Source: Pyrococcus horikoshii OT3 (lineage in GTDB: Archaea; Methanobacteriota_B; Thermococci; Thermococcales; Thermococcaceae). From it: DNA of 64,000 nt. The stretch covers positions 1,226,662 through 1,290,661 of the forward strand of contig NC_000961.1 of assembly GCF_000011105.1 (NCBI RefSeq), given 5' to 3'. Below the pieces are notes generated by a model. The model was not told where the DNA came from and did no database searches. It saw nothing but the letters and a program-made list of their open reading frames with translations. Shown one piece after another: positions 7,363 to 40,839 of the stretch. Position 1 is the stretch's first letter, and every line of letters starts with the position of its first letter. A program made the translations under genes and the position numbers.

Positions 7363-9541
7363 GTACCTTGCTTTACTTCTTGTTTTGCTATTGTTGACCC
7401 CATCAATTAAGTTAAGCACTGCTAAAGAGGTTAACATAGTGATATTTAAGGGAAGAATACTACCCCAGGAGAGGCTTATAATTGGGAACTACACAATAAC
7501 GGTAGAATTTGGAATAGATAACTTTCCTTACGTTATAGTTTCAAATGGAACATCAAAATTGGTTATAGAGAGAGCTGAGTTTGGAGCAAGCATCACCATT
7601 GAAAACTTAAGCATAACAATTGGAAGTTATAACGCCAGGAAGGGACTATTTATAGTGGCAAGCTGGAGCTCCGAGGGAGAAAAGCACGTCGCAAAGGTAG
7701 GAAGATATTTTGAAGGGTTCGAGGTTATAACTGTGACGAATTCTAGTGTAACCTTAAAGAGGGGAATTACCACAATTGAAGTACCAAAGGATAAGCTTAT
7801 ATTGTACGGGAGATACGGGATAAGATACTCCAATGGAACGATATTCCTTTATAAACTTCCTTCAGTTGAAGTCAAGAAAAAGGAAGAGAGAGAACTTGTA
7901 GTTTTCTATCCTTACAGCGAGGTAACAACCGAAGTAAACCGCAGTATTATGCTACCACTTACGATTTTCAACAATGGGACGGAAACAGTTAACGTCACGT
8001 TTTCAGTCGTTAACGCTCCAAAGGATTGGGATGTTAAGTTCTACTATCAGGGGATCGAAATTAAGAAGTTAAAACTCAGGGAAAAGGAGAGTATAACCCT
8101 TCAACTTAAGGTACTACCCTCCTCCGCTGGAAGTCATGTAGTAAAGTTTTCGATAAATGGAGATATATACTCCTTTTATGTTAACGTCGTTCAACCAAAG
8201 ATGGAAGCATTAAAGATCACAGCTCCTATACTAGTTCAAGAAGCAGAAGCTGGAAGTAAGGTCACGTTCTCGGTATTATTATCCGCGGGAGAGGATTCGG
8301 TAATATCAATGGACGTTAGGGAACCTAGGGATTGGAAAGCTTGCATCTTAGTCGATGGAGTAAGAGCCCAGGAAATCTACCTCAGGAGAGGAGAGACAAA
8401 AGTTGTTAACCTAATACTAGAGATCCCCAGAAATGCTAGTTTGGGATATTACGAAAGTAAGATAAGCTTTACAGTTAGAAAATCCAACGGAGAAGTTATT
8501 AAGAATGAAACGATAACATTAGGAGTTAACATTTACAAGACCTACAAAGGGCAGAAAGCAACCCTCAAGTTGATTTTAGTGGATGATACCGGGAGCCCGG
8601 TACCAAAGGCATTGGTCAAGGTTGGAAATGAGAGCTACGCAACAGATTCCACAGGAACTTTAGAAGTTGAAATGAATCCCGGCAAGTACGTAATCACGAT
8701 AGAAAAGGAGGGATATGAAACAAAGAAAGAAGAAGTCGAGTTAGGAGATGGGGAGAAGAAAGAGTTAAAGCTCCTGCTCGTTAGGGAACCATACTACTTT
8801 AACGTTGAAGCCCAATCAGATATTTATCCAATCGTGATGGAAGGGCTGAGTAGGCCTTTCACTATAGTAATAGAAAACCTAGGAAAGAGCGACGATGAAT
8901 ATAAGTTAGAGATCAGGGGCATTCCAGAAAATTGGAATGCATTCTTTACCGAAAGTGCTGAAGGAAATATAGAAGTTACAAAGGTTAAGGTGAAATCCGG
9001 GGAAACTAAAACAGTCTACCTTAAAGTTTATCCATCTCTAAATGCCATGCCAGGAACTTATAATGCCACTATAACGGTCATCAGTTCTTCCGGAATTAAA
9101 AAGGAAATCCCCGTAAAAATTAAGCTCATAGGCTCATATAACATGAATGTTAACCTCCTTAATTACAGGTTAACAATAACCGCTGGAGAGGAGAAAACCG
9201 CAATGATGGATATATTTAACTTTGGAAACGCACCTTTAACTAACTTAAAGATAACAGTGAAAGGTCCCCAGGGATGGGATGTAAAGGTTGACCCATCTCA
9301 GATACCATCCCTATCTCCAAAAGGTAGGGAGAGGGTAACGATCACGGTTAAAGTGCCAGAAGGAACCCCAGCAGGAGACTACAGAGTTCAAATTACCGTT
9401 AAGGCGGATCAGGCCGAATGGCAGGATACATTAAGGGTAGTTGTTAGACAGAGATCAACCTCAACTTACATCGGGGTTCTTATATTAATAATATCATTTG
9501 CCCTAGTGCTCTTCATGATGAGAAGAATCGGGAGGAGGTAA
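7355..9541 (+). CDS. Membrane-anchored surface protein with NEW3/PEGA-like domains
   Basis: 728 aa. It has a signal peptide (residues 1-23, MNRYLALLLVLLLLTPSIK), an extracellular region of repeated beta-sandwich modules rich in Asn-Ser/Thr, a carboxypeptidase-regulatory/PEGA-like module (VDDTGSPVPKALVKVG, KYVITIEKEGYETKK; about residues 408-460), then NEW3-like domains (GAPxGDYRVQIT type, about 620-690), and one C-terminal span followed by RRIGRR. Being translated inside an ABC-2 operon suggests a cargo-binding or envelope-assembly role outside the cell. The role is inference. Confidence 0.8.
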   Translation: MNRYLALLLVLLLLTPSIKLSTAKEVNIVIFKGRILPQERLIIGNYTITVEFGIDNFPYVIVSNGTSKLVIERAEFGASITIENLSITIGSYNARKGLFIVASWSSEGEKHVAKVGRYFEGFEVITVTNSSVTLKRGITTIEVPKDKLILYGRYGIRYSNGTIFLYKLPSVEVKKKEERELVVFYPYSEVTTEVNRSIMLPLTIFNNGTETVNVTFSVVNAPKDWDVKFYYQGIEIKKLKLREKESITLQLKVLPSSAGSHVVKFSINGDIYSFYVNVVQPKMEALKITAPILVQEAEAGSKVTFSVLLSAGEDSVISMDVREPRDWKACILVDGVRAQEIYLRRGETKVVNLILEIPRNASLGYYESKISFTVRKSNGEVIKNETITLGVNIYKTYKGQKATLKLILVDDTGSPVPKALVKVGNESYATDSTGTLEVEMNPGKYVITIEKEGYETKKEEVELGDGEKKELKLLLVREPYYFNVEAQSDIYPIVMEGLSRPFTIVIENLGKSDDEYKLEIRGIPENWNAFFTESAEGNIEVTKVKVKSGETKTVYLKVYPSLNAMPGTYNATITVISSSGIKKEIPVKIKLIGSYNMNVNLLNYRLTITAGEEKTAMMDIFNFGNAPLTNLKITVKGPQGWDVKVDPSQIPSLSPKGRERVTITVKVPEGTPAGDYRVQITVKADQAEWQDTLRVVVRQRSTSTYIGVLILIISFALVLFMMRRIGRR

Positions 9542-9542
9542 A

Positions 9543-10535
9543 ATGGGTGCTGAACTTAACATAGCAAGCAAAGAGCTGTATACAGCAGTAAAAACTAAGA
9601 GGTTCATAATCCTGCTCTCCACTTATTTAGTTTTTCTATTCCTAACTGTTTATTTCTCAAGGGAGTTCTCAAGTCAAGATGTTGGATACATTTCAAGTAT
9701 GTCAATCTTTGGGGCGAGTGGGACGGTATATAGAACTCCTATCTCCTCAATATTCATAAACAATGCAATGCTATGGGCATTTTTTGGTTCTTTATTGGGC
9801 GTTCTCCTAGGAGCAGACGCTATAAACAGGGAACTCTCAAAGGGGACTATAAAAGTCTTGCTTGGGCATCCAGTGTACAGGGATCAAGTAATCAACGGAA
9901 AATTCCTTGGAAATGCCTTGGCCTTAGGCATCGTAATCTTCGTGGGATTCATATTCACGATAGCCCTTGCCCTGATCTTTGGAATTCCTATGAAGGGTTT
10001 TTCCATGGTAAGACTATTAGTCCTATCTTTAGTTGTGCTCCTTTATACGCTGGTCTTCTTAAGCTTAGGGGTTATGATCTCTTCAATCATAAGGAGCCCA
10101 GAAACCGCTATGATAGTTGGAATAGGAATCTCCCTATTCTTCATTATGGTCTACCCAATGATAGCTTCTTACCTCGCCGGCCATATGGTTGGTCCAATGC
10201 CTGAGTGTAGAGCGACTGTAGTTCAGAGGACGATCACGGTCGGTACCGAAACGGTAATTGCACGAGAAACGACCACGGAGCATTGTGAAGAGATATACAT
10301 GGAATGGTATGAAGAAAAGCAAAAATGGGAAAAAAGGATAAACTTGCTAAATCCGACTATGCACTTTGCCCAACTTATGATCTACACCTTTGCGGGCGAT
10401 GAGGAAACTAGGGATTATTTACCACTCGGAGAAAGCCTAAGCTATGGAATCAACAACCTTGCAATCCTCATTGTTGAGCTACTGTTTCCGTTCTCAATAG
10501 CTTACGCTAGATTCATGACCAAGGATTTAAACTAG
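9543..10535 (+). CDS. ABC-2 type permease (NosY-like), last of operon
   Basis: 330 aa, about six spans. NIASKELYTAVKTKRF at the N-terminus and ELSKGTIKVLLGHPVYRDQVINGK (about residues 98-121) closely parallel the first permease, so the two probably form a heterodimer around the single ATPase. A loop before the last span contains two cysteines (PECRA, EHCEE), which may form an extracellular disulphide. GGGAGGAGG ends in the preceding stop region. The 3' end overlaps the convergent aminotransferase gene by 9 nt. Confidence 0.85.
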   Translation: MGAELNIASKELYTAVKTKRFIILLSTYLVFLFLTVYFSREFSSQDVGYISSMSIFGASGTVYRTPISSIFINNAMLWAFFGSLLGVLLGADAINRELSKGTIKVLLGHPVYRDQVINGKFLGNALALGIVIFVGFIFTIALALIFGIPMKGFSMVRLLVLSLVVLLYTLVFLSLGVMISSIIRSPETAMIVGIGISLFFIMVYPMIASYLAGHMVGPMPECRATVVQRTITVGTETVIARETTTEHCEEIYMEWYEEKQKWEKRINLLNPTMHFAQLMIYTFAGDEETRDYLPLGESLSYGINNLAILIVELLFPFSIAYARFMTKDLN

Positions 10536-36234: not shown

Positions 36235-36858
36235 GTGTTGCAATTGACCGAGAAATTCAAAGGTACAACTACAGTAGGCATAGTTTGTAAAGATGGAGTA
36301 GTGCTAGCTGCAGATAGGAGGGCTAGCCTAGGGAACATAATATACGCAAGGAACGTGACTAAGATACACAAGATAGATGAGCATCTAGCCATAGCTGGGG
36401 CCGGTGACGTAGGCGACATACTGAACTTAGTTAGACTCCTTAGGGCAGAAGCAAAGCTTTACTATTCTCAATCAGGGAAAAGGATGAGTGTAAAAGCATT
36501 GGCCACACTGCTGGCTAATATTATGAATGGAGCTAAATACTTCCCATACCTCGCATGGTTTTTAGTTGGAGGGTACGATGAAAAGCCGAAATTATATTCC
36601 GTTGATATGGTGGGAGGGATAACTGAGGATAAGTACGCAACTGCCGGAAGTGGTATGGAGTTTGCATATTCGATTCTTGACTCTGAATATAAAGATAATT
36701 TAACCCTTGAAGAAGGTATAAAACTGGCCGTTAAGGCAATAAACACGGCAATTAAGAGGGATGTATTCTCAGGGGATGGTATTCTGGTCGTTACCATAAC
36801 AAAGGAGGGTTACAAAGAGCTTTCAGATTCAGAGCTTGAAGCAACTCTCAAGCAGTGA
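36235..36858 (+). CDS. psmB: 20S proteasome beta subunit
   Basis: 207 aa precursor. Cleavage at [11 protein letters not shown] would expose the catalytic Thr1 after a 10-residue propeptide; Asp17 (LAADRRAS) and Lys33 (NVTKIHK) of the mature chain complete the active site. The start is uncertain: GTG at 36235 is the longest, but CGGGGTG overlaps it, and TTG at 36244 sits 6 nt behind that site. The protein forms the inner beta rings that degrade unfolded proteins. Confidence 0.93.
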
Positions 36859-36874
36859 GAGGGAGGTGACTTTC

Positions 36875-38821
36875 TTGATAAAGAGAGAGACACAGGTCGA
36901 TCAGATACTAAGGGATATTAGGGCCGTAGTTAATCAAATGGTTCCAAAGGAAGCAAAAATAACGGAAATAGAGTTTGAGGGTCCCGAGTTGGTTATATAT
37001 GTAAAGAATCCAGAAGCTATAATGAAAGATGGGGAGCTAATAAAAGACCTGGCAAAGGTTTTGAAGAAAAGAATAAGCGTAAGGCCAGATCCGGAGGTTC
37101 TCCTACCTCCTGAAGAAGCTGAAAAGTTGATATTTGAGATAGTTCCAAAGGAAGCAGAGATTACCAACATAGCCTTTGATCCCTCAGTTGGGGAAGTCCT
37201 AATAGAGGCCAAAAAACCAGGCTTAGTTATAGGGAAAAATGGAGAAACACTTAGGCTTATCACTCAGAAAGTCAAATGGGCCCCTAAGGTTGTCAGAACG
37301 CCTCCTCTCCAAAGTCAGACCATCTACTCCATAAGGCAAATACTTCAAACGGAAAGTAAAGACAGGAGAAAATTCCTAAGACAAGTTGGGAGGAACATAT
37401 ATAGGAAGCCCGAATACAAGAGCAGATGGATTAGAATCACTGGACTTGGCGGATTTAGGGAGGTTGGTAGAAGTGCCCTTCTTGTGCAAACAGATGAGAG
37501 CTTCGTTCTCGTGGATTTTGGGGTAAATGTTGCTATGTTGAATGATCCATATAAAGCGTTTCCCCATTTCGACGCCCCAGAGTTTCAATACGTCCTGAGG
37601 GAAGGTTTGCTTGATGCGATAATAATCACTCATGCTCACCTTGATCACTGTGGAATGCTACCGTATCTGTTCAGGTATAACCTATTCGATGGCCCAATAT
37701 ATACAACCCCACCAACTAGGGATCTAATGGTTCTCCTACAAAAGGATTTCATAGAGATACAGCAGAGTAATGGGCAAGATCCACTTTACAGACCTAGAGA
37801 TATAAAGGAAGTTATAAAGCATACGATAACCTTAGACTATGGTGAAGTGAGGGATATCTCCCCAGATATTAGGTTAACCTTGCACAATGCTGGGCATATC
37901 CTGGGTTCCGCGATAGTACATCTACACATAGGGAACGGCCTTCACAATATAGCCATAACTGGGGACTTCAAGTTCATTCCAACTAGGCTTCTAGAGCCAG
38001 CGAATGCAAAGTTCCCAAGGCTGGAAACTCTCGTTATGGAATCAACCTATGGTGGAGCAAATGACATACAGATGCCGAGAGAAGAAGCCGAGAAAAGGTT
38101 AATTGAGGTAATCCATAATACGATAAAGAGGGGAGGAAAAGTCCTCATTCCAGCAATGGCCGTTGGAAGGGCCCAGGAGGTAATGATGGTTCTTGAAGAA
38201 TATGCAAGGATAGGGGGAATAGAGGTTCCAATATACCTAGATGGTATGATCTGGGAAGCTACGGCAATTCACACAGCGTATCCAGAGTACCTCAGTAGAA
38301 GACTAAGAGAGCAGATCTTCAAAGAAGGATATAACCCGTTCTTAAGTGAAATATTTCACCCCGTTGCGAACTCAAGGGAAAGGCAAGATATAATTGATAG
38401 CAATGAACCAGCGATAATAATAGCATCTTCTGGTATGTTAGTTGGTGGACCCAGCGTTGAGTACTTCAAACAGCTCGCTCCAGATCCAAAGAACAGCATA
38501 ATCTTCGTTAGCTACCAGGCGGAAGGAACCCTTGGAAGGCAAGTTCAGAGCGGAATTAGGGAAATTCCAATGGTTGGTGAGGAAGGGAGAACTGAAGTAA
38601 TAAAGGTTAATATGGAAGTTCACACAATCGACGGTTTCTCAGGTCATGCGGATAGGAGAGAGTTAATGAATTACGTAGCTAAGGTAAGACCGAGACCTGA
38701 AAGGATAATAACCGTTCACGGAGAACCACAAAAGTGCCTCGATTTAGCAACTAGCATACACAGAAAATTCGGAATATCAACGAGGGCCCCAAATAATTTA
38801 GACACCATAAGGTTGAGGTGA
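36875..38821 (+). CDS. aCPSF1/FttA, KH-domain beta-CASP ribonuclease
   Basis: About 648 aa. Two N-terminal KH domains (residues 1-145, including KPGLVIGKNGETLRLIT) precede a metallo-beta-lactamase core (IIITHAHLDHCGMLPYL, about 250; NAGHILGSAIVH, about 340; TGDFKF) and the beta-CASP insert (ESTYGGAND; IPAMAVGRAQEVMMVL), closing with DGFSGHADRREL. The family cleaves nascent RNA and terminates transcription in archaea. TTG at 36875 fits GGGAGGTGA 6 nt upstream; a GTG at 36866 (MTFLIKRE) overlaps that site. Confidence 0.94.
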   Translation: MIKRETQVDQILRDIRAVVNQMVPKEAKITEIEFEGPELVIYVKNPEAIMKDGELIKDLAKVLKKRISVRPDPEVLLPPEEAEKLIFEIVPKEAEITNIAFDPSVGEVLIEAKKPGLVIGKNGETLRLITQKVKWAPKVVRTPPLQSQTIYSIRQILQTESKDRRKFLRQVGRNIYRKPEYKSRWIRITGLGGFREVGRSALLVQTDESFVLVDFGVNVAMLNDPYKAFPHFDAPEFQYVLREGLLDAIIITHAHLDHCGMLPYLFRYNLFDGPIYTTPPTRDLMVLLQKDFIEIQQSNGQDPLYRPRDIKEVIKHTITLDYGEVRDISPDIRLTLHNAGHILGSAIVHLHIGNGLHNIAITGDFKFIPTRLLEPANAKFPRLETLVMESTYGGANDIQMPREEAEKRLIEVIHNTIKRGGKVLIPAMAVGRAQEVMMVLEEYARIGGIEVPIYLDGMIWEATAIHTAYPEYLSRRLREQIFKEGYNPFLSEIFHPVANSRERQDIIDSNEPAIIIASSGMLVGGPSVEYFKQLAPDPKNSIIFVSYQAEGTLGRQVQSGIREIPMVGEEGRTEVIKVNMEVHTIDGFSGHADRRELMNYVAKVRPRPERIITVHGEPQKCLDLATSIHRKFGISTRAPNNLDTIRLR

Positions 38822-38825
38822 CAGC

Positions 38826-40148
38826 ATGAAGTGCCCAAGATGTGGTAGGGAATACATATCTTCAATCCCACCTTTTTGTATCTGTGGGGAAGAGCTCGAG
38901 ATAACTTATGATTATTCCTCTGTAGACGTGAGAAAATGGAAAAGAAGAAATCCTGGGGTATGGAGATATAAAGAGCTTCTGCCAGAAGTTAAGAAGATCA
39001 TAACCCTACAAGAGGGAGGAACACCACTAATAAAGGCTAGGATAAGCGAGAAAATCAACGTTGATGTTTATATAAAAGATGAAACCAGAAATCCAACCGG
39101 CTCCTTTAGGGATAGGTTAGCCACAGTTGCAATCTCCTATGGTTTACCTTACGCATCAAATGGATTTATAGTTGCGAGTGATGGAAATGCAGCTGCTTCA
39201 GTCGCTGCTTACTCGGCAAGAGCTGAAAAGGAGTGCTTCGTAGTTGTTCCCAGGAAAGTTGATAAAGGAAAGCTAATTCAAATGATAGCCTTTGGAGCGA
39301 GGATAATACGCTATGGTGACAGCGTTGATGAAGCAATAGAATATGCAAGAGAGCTTTCAAAACTTAACGGCTTATACAATGTCACACCCGAGGATAATAT
39401 AATCGGACTTGAGGGTCAGAAGACGATAGCATTCGAACTTTGGGAGGAAATTAATCCAACGCATGTAATAGTCCCGACGGGAAGCGGGAGTTACATATAC
39501 TCGATATACAAGGGGTTCAAGGAACTCATCAAAATTGGAGTGCTAGAGAAGATGCCAAGATTAATTGCCGTTCAAACGGAGAGATGCAATCCTATAGCCG
39601 CTGAAATTTTGGGATTAAAAAAAGAATGTAAAGAAACTAAAGCTCTCGGATTATATGTGAAGAACCCGGTAATGAAGTCTAGAGTTATAAGGGCTATAAA
39701 GGAAAGTGGAGGAACAGCAGTTGTTGTAAATGAAAACGACATAATTACCGGGGAAAAGTTGCTAGCCAATGAAGGGATATTTGCGGAGCTTTCCTCGGCC
39801 GTTGTAATGCCCGCCCTATTAAGCCTAGTTGAAAAGGGAATAATTGAAAAAGGAGATAAAGTAGTTTTGGTTGTTACCGGTTCAGGACTCAAAATTGGTG
39901 AAGGGGGAAGAGAGAAATTCTCCATTGGTGGAACTAAGCTTGAGATTCTTAAAATCCTCGAGGAAAGAGAGATGTACGCCTATGAAATTTGGCAAGCACT
40001 AGGAAAACCCCTAAAGTATCAAGCCGTTCATCAGCATATAAAGGAATTACAAGAGTTAGGCCTCATAAAGGAGGCATATAGAAAGGGGAAGAGGATATAT
40101 TACAAGCTGACTGAGAGAGGTAGAAGGCTTATTGAAAATCTTGAGTAG
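38826..40148 (+). CDS. Threonine-synthase-like protein with Lys-to-Arg change and C-terminal winged helix
   Basis: 440 aa. An N-terminal zinc ribbon (CPRCGREY...CICGEEL) and a fold-type II PLP domain (residues 30-360; VASDGNAAASVAAYSA, VPTGSGSYIYSIYKG phosphate loop, LVVTGSGLKIGE) are followed by a winged-helix domain (EILKILEEREMYAYEIWQAL... KGKRIYYKLTERGRRLIE; about 368-440). The PLP Schiff-base motif, normally SFKDR, reads NPTGSFRDRLA: codon AGG in place of lysine. Synthase activity is therefore doubtful; a ligand-sensing regulator is a better guess. It follows aCPSF1 by 4 nt. Confidence 0.85.
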   Translation: MKCPRCGREYISSIPPFCICGEELEITYDYSSVDVRKWKRRNPGVWRYKELLPEVKKIITLQEGGTPLIKARISEKINVDVYIKDETRNPTGSFRDRLATVAISYGLPYASNGFIVASDGNAAASVAAYSARAEKECFVVVPRKVDKGKLIQMIAFGARIIRYGDSVDEAIEYARELSKLNGLYNVTPEDNIIGLEGQKTIAFELWEEINPTHVIVPTGSGSYIYSIYKGFKELIKIGVLEKMPRLIAVQTERCNPIAAEILGLKKECKETKALGLYVKNPVMKSRVIRAIKESGGTAVVVNENDIITGEKLLANEGIFAELSSAVVMPALLSLVEKGIIEKGDKVVLVVTGSGLKIGEGGREKFSIGGTKLEILKILEEREMYAYEIWQALGKPLKYQAVHQHIKELQELGLIKEAYRKGKRIYYKLTERGRRLIENLE

Positions 40149-40158
40149 AGGGTGGTGA

Positions 40159-40839
<681 letters not shown>

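What the first reader, a model, noticed from the sequence alone, without database searches (positions are those of the whole stretch)
38826..40148. Threonine synthase homologue without its PLP lysine, fused to a winged helix
The family motif SFKDR, whose lysine forms the Schiff base with PLP, reads SFRDR here (codon AGG). The rest of the fold-type II core, including the phosphate-binding VPTGSGSYIYS loop, looks well kept, and about 70 C-terminal residues form a PadR/ArsR-like winged helix. A catalytic fold that keeps its ligand pocket but loses the essential base and gains a DNA-binding-type domain suggests a metabolite-sensing transcription regulator. An alternative is a catalytically inactive partner of a true synthase encoded elsewhere.
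Basis: partly seen in the sequence, partly recalled or inferred. Interest (0 to 1): 0.8.

Follow-up and report, generated by a model that had tools for sequence, protein, structure and literature searches.

The report
Archaeal vitamin B6 gene regulator
A gene annotated as the amino-acid enzyme threonine synthase is, across many archaea, most likely a dead enzyme fused to a DNA-binding domain that switches the cell's vitamin B6 synthesis and uptake genes, probably by sensing B6 itself.

Summary
Confirmed: window 38826-40148 (+) encodes a 440-aa threonine-synthase-like protein. Its Schiff-base lysine is arginine (R95, AGG at 39108-39110), and a winged helix is fused at the C-terminus. Two lysine-bearing ThrC homologues sit elsewhere in the genome.

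The fused protein is not a local oddity. It forms one clade found in Thermococcaceae, Bathyarchaeia, Asgard and other archaea. Position 95 is R in most members, but also I, L, V, M, S, N or T, and K in three sub-groups. Even K forms have lost the substrate-side residues conserved in true ThrC, while PLP-cradle residues are kept.

Its neighbours point to vitamin B6. Outside Thermococcaceae, 95 of 129 loci adjoin an ECF S-component of PF07155, the PdxU/HmpT B6-transporter family; several Asgard loci without it adjoin pdxS-pdxT. A palindrome, TTCAAGTTnnAACTTGAA, lies in pdxS and ECF-S promoters of Thermococcaceae and between pdxS and the fused gene in Asgard. In the genus with gains and losses, pdxS promoters carry it in 15/15 genomes with the fused gene and 0/11 without.

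Best reading: a PLP/B6-sensing repressor built on a fold-type II pseudoenzyme, working like PdxR/MocR but unrelated. Ligand and DNA binding are untested; in this species the pdxS site is degenerate.

The parts
38826..40148 (+). Fused ThrC-like (fold-type II PLP) + winged-helix protein, 440 aa, proposed B6 regulator
38832..38885 (+). N-terminal zinc-ribbon cysteines C3, C6, C18, C20, as in archaeal ThrC
   Evidence: three of the four Cys invariant in 95 homologues and C3 at least 90%; also in A2 with true ThrCs
39000..39881 (+). PALP domain (residues 59-352)
   Evidence: Pfam PF00291, 249 bits; Foldseek best matches are threonine synthases
39108..39110 (+). AGG codon, R95, at the Schiff-base lysine position
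39471..39503 (+). VPTGSGSYIYS, glycine-rich loop equivalent to the PLP-phosphate loop of ThrC
   Evidence: alignment
39891..39926 (+). Flexible linker (residues 356-367)
   Evidence: pLDDT below 50
39930..40142 (+). Winged helix-turn-helix (residues 369-439); putative recognition helix 398-410 (40017-40055), wing 414-428
   Evidence: Pfam HTH_45/PadR/HTH_5, AlphaFold2
36836..38821 (+). aCPSF1 (KH-CPSF73 nuclease) gene directly upstream, 4 bp gap, likely co-transcribed
   Evidence: same neighbour in 62 sampled loci
40159..40839 (+). UMP kinase pyrH (amino acid kinase family) directly downstream; no operator, not a supported target

Best explanation
The protein is a transcription regulator of vitamin B6 supply in archaea. 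The threonine-synthase-like domain no longer catalyses. It keeps a PLP cradle and probably binds PLP (or PMP or another B6 vitamer) non-covalently as an effector. The C-terminal winged helix, as a dimer, binds a palindrome, TTCAAGTTnnAACTTGAA, that overlaps the start of transcription just downstream of the TATA box of pdxS (PLP synthase) and of a PdxU/HmpT-type ECF S-component gene. High B6 would then shut off synthesis and uptake. Shown here by computation: architecture, loss of the lysine and of substrate-side residues, single clade, neighbour association with B6 genes, the palindrome in their promoters, and its co-presence with the fused gene. Inferred: that this protein binds the palindrome, that it represses, and that the ligand is PLP.
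For: (1) The fused proteins form one clade on the catalytic-core alignment alone, with the winged helix and column 95 left out (SH-aLRT 90 and 88). (2) Column 95 is R, I, L, V, M, S, N or T, and K in three sub-groups. Residues constant in true ThrC, K61/T85/R160 in Thermus numbering, are replaced, the last two even in K forms; N87, K116, Q119, T317 and the glycine loop are kept. (3) 95 of 129 non-Thermococcaceae loci adjoin a PF07155 ECF S-component; its best PDB match is 4hzu_S, HmpT, which binds pyridoxamine (PMC4860826), and PF07155 holds the B6 transporters PdxU and PdxU2/HmpT (PMC9997740). (4) Asgard loci without it adjoin pdxS-pdxT (PF01680/PF01174). In a further sample of 20 Asgard loci, 19 have one or the other next door, 15 divergently. 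(5) The palindrome lies between pdxS and the fused gene in Asgard and before ECF-S and pdxS in Thermococcaceae. Exact TCAAGTTNNAACTTGA occurs only 1-3 times per genome in 23 genomes, nearly always at these two genes, and the reversed control pattern hits almost nothing. (6) In genus g3, with versus without the fused gene, the pdxS site scores at least 13/16 in 15/15 versus 0/11, and the ECF-S site in 15/18 versus 0/11. All 67 fused-positive Thermococcaceae have the ECF-S gene, against 12 of 27 fused-negative.
Against: No binding or expression data exist. In the window's own species the pdxS site keeps only one good half (11/16, not beyond shuffles), and the ECF-S gene lies next to thiL without a site. 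Sister species have 12-14/16 at pdxS. The fused gene is not adjacent to B6 genes in Thermococcaceae. No shared operator was found in Bathyarchaeia, Loki or Thor loci. K forms could in principle be enzymes. Presence/absence counts are not corrected for phylogeny.
Confidence: 0.8

Rival explanations
1. A regulator of threonine synthesis: the domain senses threonine-pathway metabolites (or PLP) and controls a true thrC.
For: 14 Bathyarchaeia loci (about 11-12 genomes, all R) carry a genuine ThrC, 57-62% identical to the Pyrococcus enzyme, divergently upstream, gaps 114-900 bp.
Against: Most of the same Bathyarchaeia loci also carry the ECF-S gene directly downstream. Elsewhere the link is to B6 genes. 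The phosphohomoserine-side residues are lost. The exact palindrome in Thermococcaceae was found at pdxS and ECF-S, not at a thrC (two sites at one moeA/serS junction apart).
Confidence: 0.1
2. The ECF transporter carries a thiamin precursor (HMP) and the regulator senses that, not B6.
For: In the own genome the PF07155 gene is divergent from thiL; HmpT was first named for HMP (PMC4860826).
Against: The same palindrome sits before pdxS, and fused genes adjoin pdxST in Asgard. All 11 high-quality genomes without pdxS have the ECF-S gene (not significant alone). The sensor is a PLP-enzyme fold.
Confidence: 0.08
3. A catalytically inactive partner (pseudoenzyme) that modulates a true threonine synthase by protein contact.
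For: Most genomes with it that were examined also hold a lysine-bearing ThrC homologue.
Against: Does not explain the winged helix, the B6 neighbours or the operator.
Confidence: 0.03
4. A working PLP enzyme of a different reaction, with another base replacing the lysine.
For: The core is well conserved; K forms exist in Palaeococcus-like, Lokiarchaeal and some Bathyarchaeal genomes.
Against: Position 95 tolerates R, I, L, V, M, S, N and T, unlike a catalytic residue; the winged helix and operator remain unexplained.
Confidence: 0.05

Closest known systems
PdxR / MocR-family regulators (GntR winged helix + fold-type I aminotransferase domain)
   Same: Enzyme-derived PLP-binding domain fused to a winged helix; controls PLP supply genes, including pdxST in bacteria.
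   Different: Fold-type II threonine-synthase core instead of fold-type I; PadR/HTH_45-like winged helix at the C-terminus instead of GntR at the N-terminus; lysine mostly lost; archaeal, whereas MocR-TFs are reported as not present in Archaea (PMC5320631).
NCBIfam NF004170 (PRK05638) 'threonine synthase'
   Same: Full-length match at 831 bits against a cut-off of 421; this is the family.
   Different: The name implies an enzyme; the evidence here says most members are not.
Threonine synthase ThrC (TIGR00260; PDB 1uim, 2d1f, 6cgq)
   Same: Fold, zinc ribbon, PLP-cradle residues.
   Different: Schiff-base lysine and residues equivalent to Thermus T85 and R160 replaced; extra winged helix.
PadR-family winged helix
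   Same: Pfam PadR (30.8 bits) and HTH_45 (31.6 bits), over cut-off.
   Different: Usually stand-alone; here the effector domain is a PLP-enzyme fold.

Membership tests
Threonine synthase (ThrC) | Fold-type II PALP core | tested here: met
   Pfam PF00291; Foldseek TM-score about 0.84 to ThrC structures
Threonine synthase (ThrC) | Schiff-base lysine in SFKDR | tested here: not met
   R95 here; R/I/L/V/M/S/N/T in most of the clade
Threonine synthase (ThrC) | Residues constant in true ThrCs on the substrate side (Thermus T85, R160) | tested here: not met
   N/D and G/V/S/T/A in fused members; their substrate role is from memory of the Thermus structure
Threonine synthase (ThrC) | Threonine synthase activity | not testable with these tools
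   needs enzyme assay
NCBIfam NF004170 / PRK05638 | Whole-protein score over curated cut-off | tested here: met
   831 against 421 bits
MocR / PdxR regulators | N-terminal GntR winged helix | tested here: not met
   C-terminal PadR/HTH_45-like winged helix; no GntR match
MocR / PdxR regulators | Fold-type I aminotransferase domain | tested here: not met
   Fold-type II PALP
MocR / PdxR regulators | Operators at PLP synthesis or B6 uptake genes | tested here: met
   Palindrome at pdxS and PF07155 ECF-S promoters, tracking the gene in genus g3
MocR / PdxR regulators | Binds PLP | not testable with these tools
   PLP-cradle residues kept, binding not measured
PadR-like winged helix | Profile match and winged-helix fold | tested here: met
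ECF S-component PdxU/HmpT (PF07155), neighbour gene | PF07155 match | tested here: met
   E 1e-22 to 1e-35; PDB 4hzu_S E 6.5e-24

The most novel reading that the evidence does not exclude
A widespread, probably ancient archaeal family of vitamin B6 sensors in which a fold-type II PLP enzyme (threonine synthase) lost its Schiff-base lysine and became a transcription repressor of pdxST and of B6 uptake. It would be an independent archaeal counterpart of the bacterial fold-type I PdxR/MocR regulators, shared by Thermococcota, Bathyarchaeia and Asgard archaea and currently annotated as threonine synthase.
Probability: 0.65. Interest if true: 0.87.

Novelty: new variant of a known kind. Interest (0 to 1): 0.82.

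Why it matters
I found no regulator of vitamin B6 described in archaea, and MocR-type regulators are reported as absent there (PMC5320631). If right, this names one with its operator and regulon. It shows that PLP-sensing regulators arose at least twice from unrelated PLP-enzyme folds. It supports the PF07155 S-components as archaeal B6 importers, a poorly resolved step (PMC9997740). It also corrects 'threonine synthase' annotations that would mislead metabolic models. Every part can be tested in genetically tractable hyperthermophiles.

Tried and rejected
pyrH and the downstream ABC importer as targets: no operator-like site in the window above chance. R95 as sequencing error or decay: rejected by six-codon conservation. 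A conserved palindrome between thrC and the fused gene in Bathyarchaeia: none common to the set. The palindrome upstream of fused genes in Bathyarchaeia, Loki and Thor: no enrichment beyond the pdxS-linked Asgard loci. Literature for a ThrC-winged helix fusion, an archaeal B6 regulator or the motif: nothing found; Kaur and Subramanian 2017 on the ThrC zinc ribbon is not held. The second structure prediction was not used, because the tool gives no ligand or dimer modelling.

Full report
Observation. The ORF at 38826-40148 (+) is real. It follows the aCPSF1 gene by 4 bp and precedes pyrH. The motif is NPTGSFRDR with AGG at 39108-39110 (R95). Pfam finds PALP (residues 59-352) and C-terminal winged-helix families over cut-off. 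AlphaFold2 on a 95-sequence alignment gives pLDDT 90.4 and pTM 0.81, with a flexible linker and a canonical winged helix at 369-439. Foldseek's closest solved structures are all threonine synthases. NCBIfam calls the whole protein 'threonine synthase' NF004170, 831 bits, so the fused architecture is a recognised family, but under an enzyme's name. The genome has two other ThrC homologues that keep SFKDR.

Breadth. Of 94 Thermococcaceae genomes, 67 carry the fused gene. R is written with all six Arg codons across orthologues; only two Palaeococcus-like genomes have K. A sister family in the class has it with R. A scan of GTDB genomes and targeted searches recovered the fused form in Bathyarchaeia, Desulfurococcales, Thaumarchaeota, Lokiarchaeota, Thorarchaeota, Njordarchaeota and other Asgards. 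The first scan was seeded with KDETRNPT and is biased to this motif. Column 95 holds R in most, K in three sub-groups, and I, L, V, M, S, N and T elsewhere. On trees of the catalytic core, without the winged helix and column 95, all fused proteins fall in one clade (SH-aLRT 90 and 88). K versus non-K needs four changes, and a non-lysine ancestor of the fused clade with later K is the simplest reading. The trees are quick-mode, with some long branches.

Pocket. Residues constant in true ThrCs but replaced in fused proteins include Thermus K61, T85 and R160, and the last two are replaced even in K-bearing fused proteins. Residues kept in both include N87, K116, Q119, T317 and the glycine of the phosphate loop. 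That N87, T317 and the loop hold PLP, and that R160 and T85 serve the substrate, is established knowledge of the Thermus structure recalled from memory, not tested here. The pattern is what a PLP-binding non-enzyme would show.

Neighbours. Outside Thermococcaceae, 95 of 129 fused loci lie next to one gene family; some genomes are counted twice because two searches found them. It is PF07155, an ECF-transporter S-component, over cut-off. Its profile's best PDB match is HmpT (4hzu_S, E 6.5e-24), from which pyridoxamine was recovered by mass spectrometry (PMC4860826). PF07155/COG4720 contains PdxU and PdxU2/HmpT (PMC9997740). Asgard loci without this gene instead adjoin pdxS and pdxT. In 20 further Asgard loci, 14 have ECF-S and 5 have pdxS-pdxT next door, 15 of the 19 divergently upstream, the usual regulator-target layout. 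About a dozen Bathyarchaeia also have a true thrC divergently upstream, so thrC may be an additional target there.

Operator. The Asgard pdxS/fused intergenic regions share a palindrome, TATACAAGTTATAACTTGTATA or ATACAAGTTACAACTTGTAT. Independently, the promoters of the ECF-S gene in Thermococcaceae carry TTTCAAGTTTTAACTTGAAA directly after the TATA box. The 14-bp core CAAGTTnnAACTTG is the same. An exact search for TCAAGTTNNAACTTGA in 94 genomes finds 1-3 sites per genome in 23 genomes and almost none for the reversed control. The sites fall before ECF-S or before pdxS (coordinates); the only others are one homologous pair at the moeA/serS junction. Scoring the 16-position consensus: pdxS promoters of most Pyrococcus-group relatives score 13-14, at the same place after the TATA box. 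The window's own genome and one relative keep only the AACTTGA half (11/16, p about 0.06-0.1). In genus g3, which has both states, pdxS promoters score at least 13 in 15/15 genomes with the fused gene and 0/11 without; ECF-S promoters 15/18 versus 0/11. One of the three ECF-S exceptions, G048, has a frameshifted fused gene. The fused-negative g3 ECF-S genes examined lie after the same preceding gene, so the operator appears lost from the same locus. These counts are not corrected for shared ancestry.

Co-occurrence. All 67 fused-positive Thermococcaceae have the ECF-S gene; of 27 fused-negative, 15 lack it (Fisher p 2e-10, uncorrected; 74 high-quality genomes p 9e-7). All 11 high-quality genomes without pdxS have the ECF-S gene, as expected if it imports B6, though this alone is not significant.

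Mechanism. The operator lies just downstream of the TATA box and so should overlap the transcription start, which fits a repressor. A PLP- or PMP-bound dimer would block pdxS and ECF-S; falling B6 would release it. Replacement of the lysine means the effector is not held as an internal aldimine, which suits a reversible sensor. Direction of control and ligand are inferences.

Limits. There is no experiment. In the window's own species the regulon is weaker than in its relatives: the pdxS site is degenerate and the ECF-S gene lies next to thiL without a site. Operators in Bathyarchaeia, Loki and Thor lineages were not found. The literature search covers open-licence papers only.

Noticed in passing
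L096, L111, L117, L127, L129, L134, L158, L254, L260, L262, L264: In about a dozen Bathyarchaeia genomes a genuine threonine synthase gene lies divergently upstream of the fused gene (gap 114-900 bp), suggesting thrC as an additional target there.
   Followed up: partly
L267:8804-9415 (-) and 9465-10394 (+): In the window's own genome the PF07155 ECF S-component gene is divergent from thiL and has no B6 palindrome, so its substrate could differ from that of its relatives.
   Followed up: partly
L346:2071 and L348:361: One conserved exact palindrome at the moeA/serS junction in two g4 genomes, the only exact site not at pdxS or ECF-S.
   Followed up: partly
L066 (G077) and L080 (G048): Fused gene split by a frameshift; in G048 the ECF-S operator is also degraded (L301, 11/16).
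   Followed up: partly
L071, L072, L185-L188, L196, L197, L199: In a sister family and some Asgards the fused gene is divergent from GINS and MCM replication genes instead of B6 genes.
   Followed up: no
L036:4441-4794, cluster of 48 loci: A conserved 107-117 aa membrane protein of unknown family lies between the fused gene and pyrH in Thermococcaceae outside Pyrococcus.
   Followed up: partly
L004 (G000:C1:823277-823510): A stand-alone winged-helix protein 40% identical to the fused winged helix is encoded elsewhere in the genome.
   Followed up: no
L064, L068, L150, L108, L139: Three fused sub-groups carry lysine at position 95 yet lack the ThrC substrate-side residues; whether the lysine was regained and does anything is unexplained. 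The Bathyarchaeal K group mostly lacks the ECF-S neighbour.
   Followed up: partly
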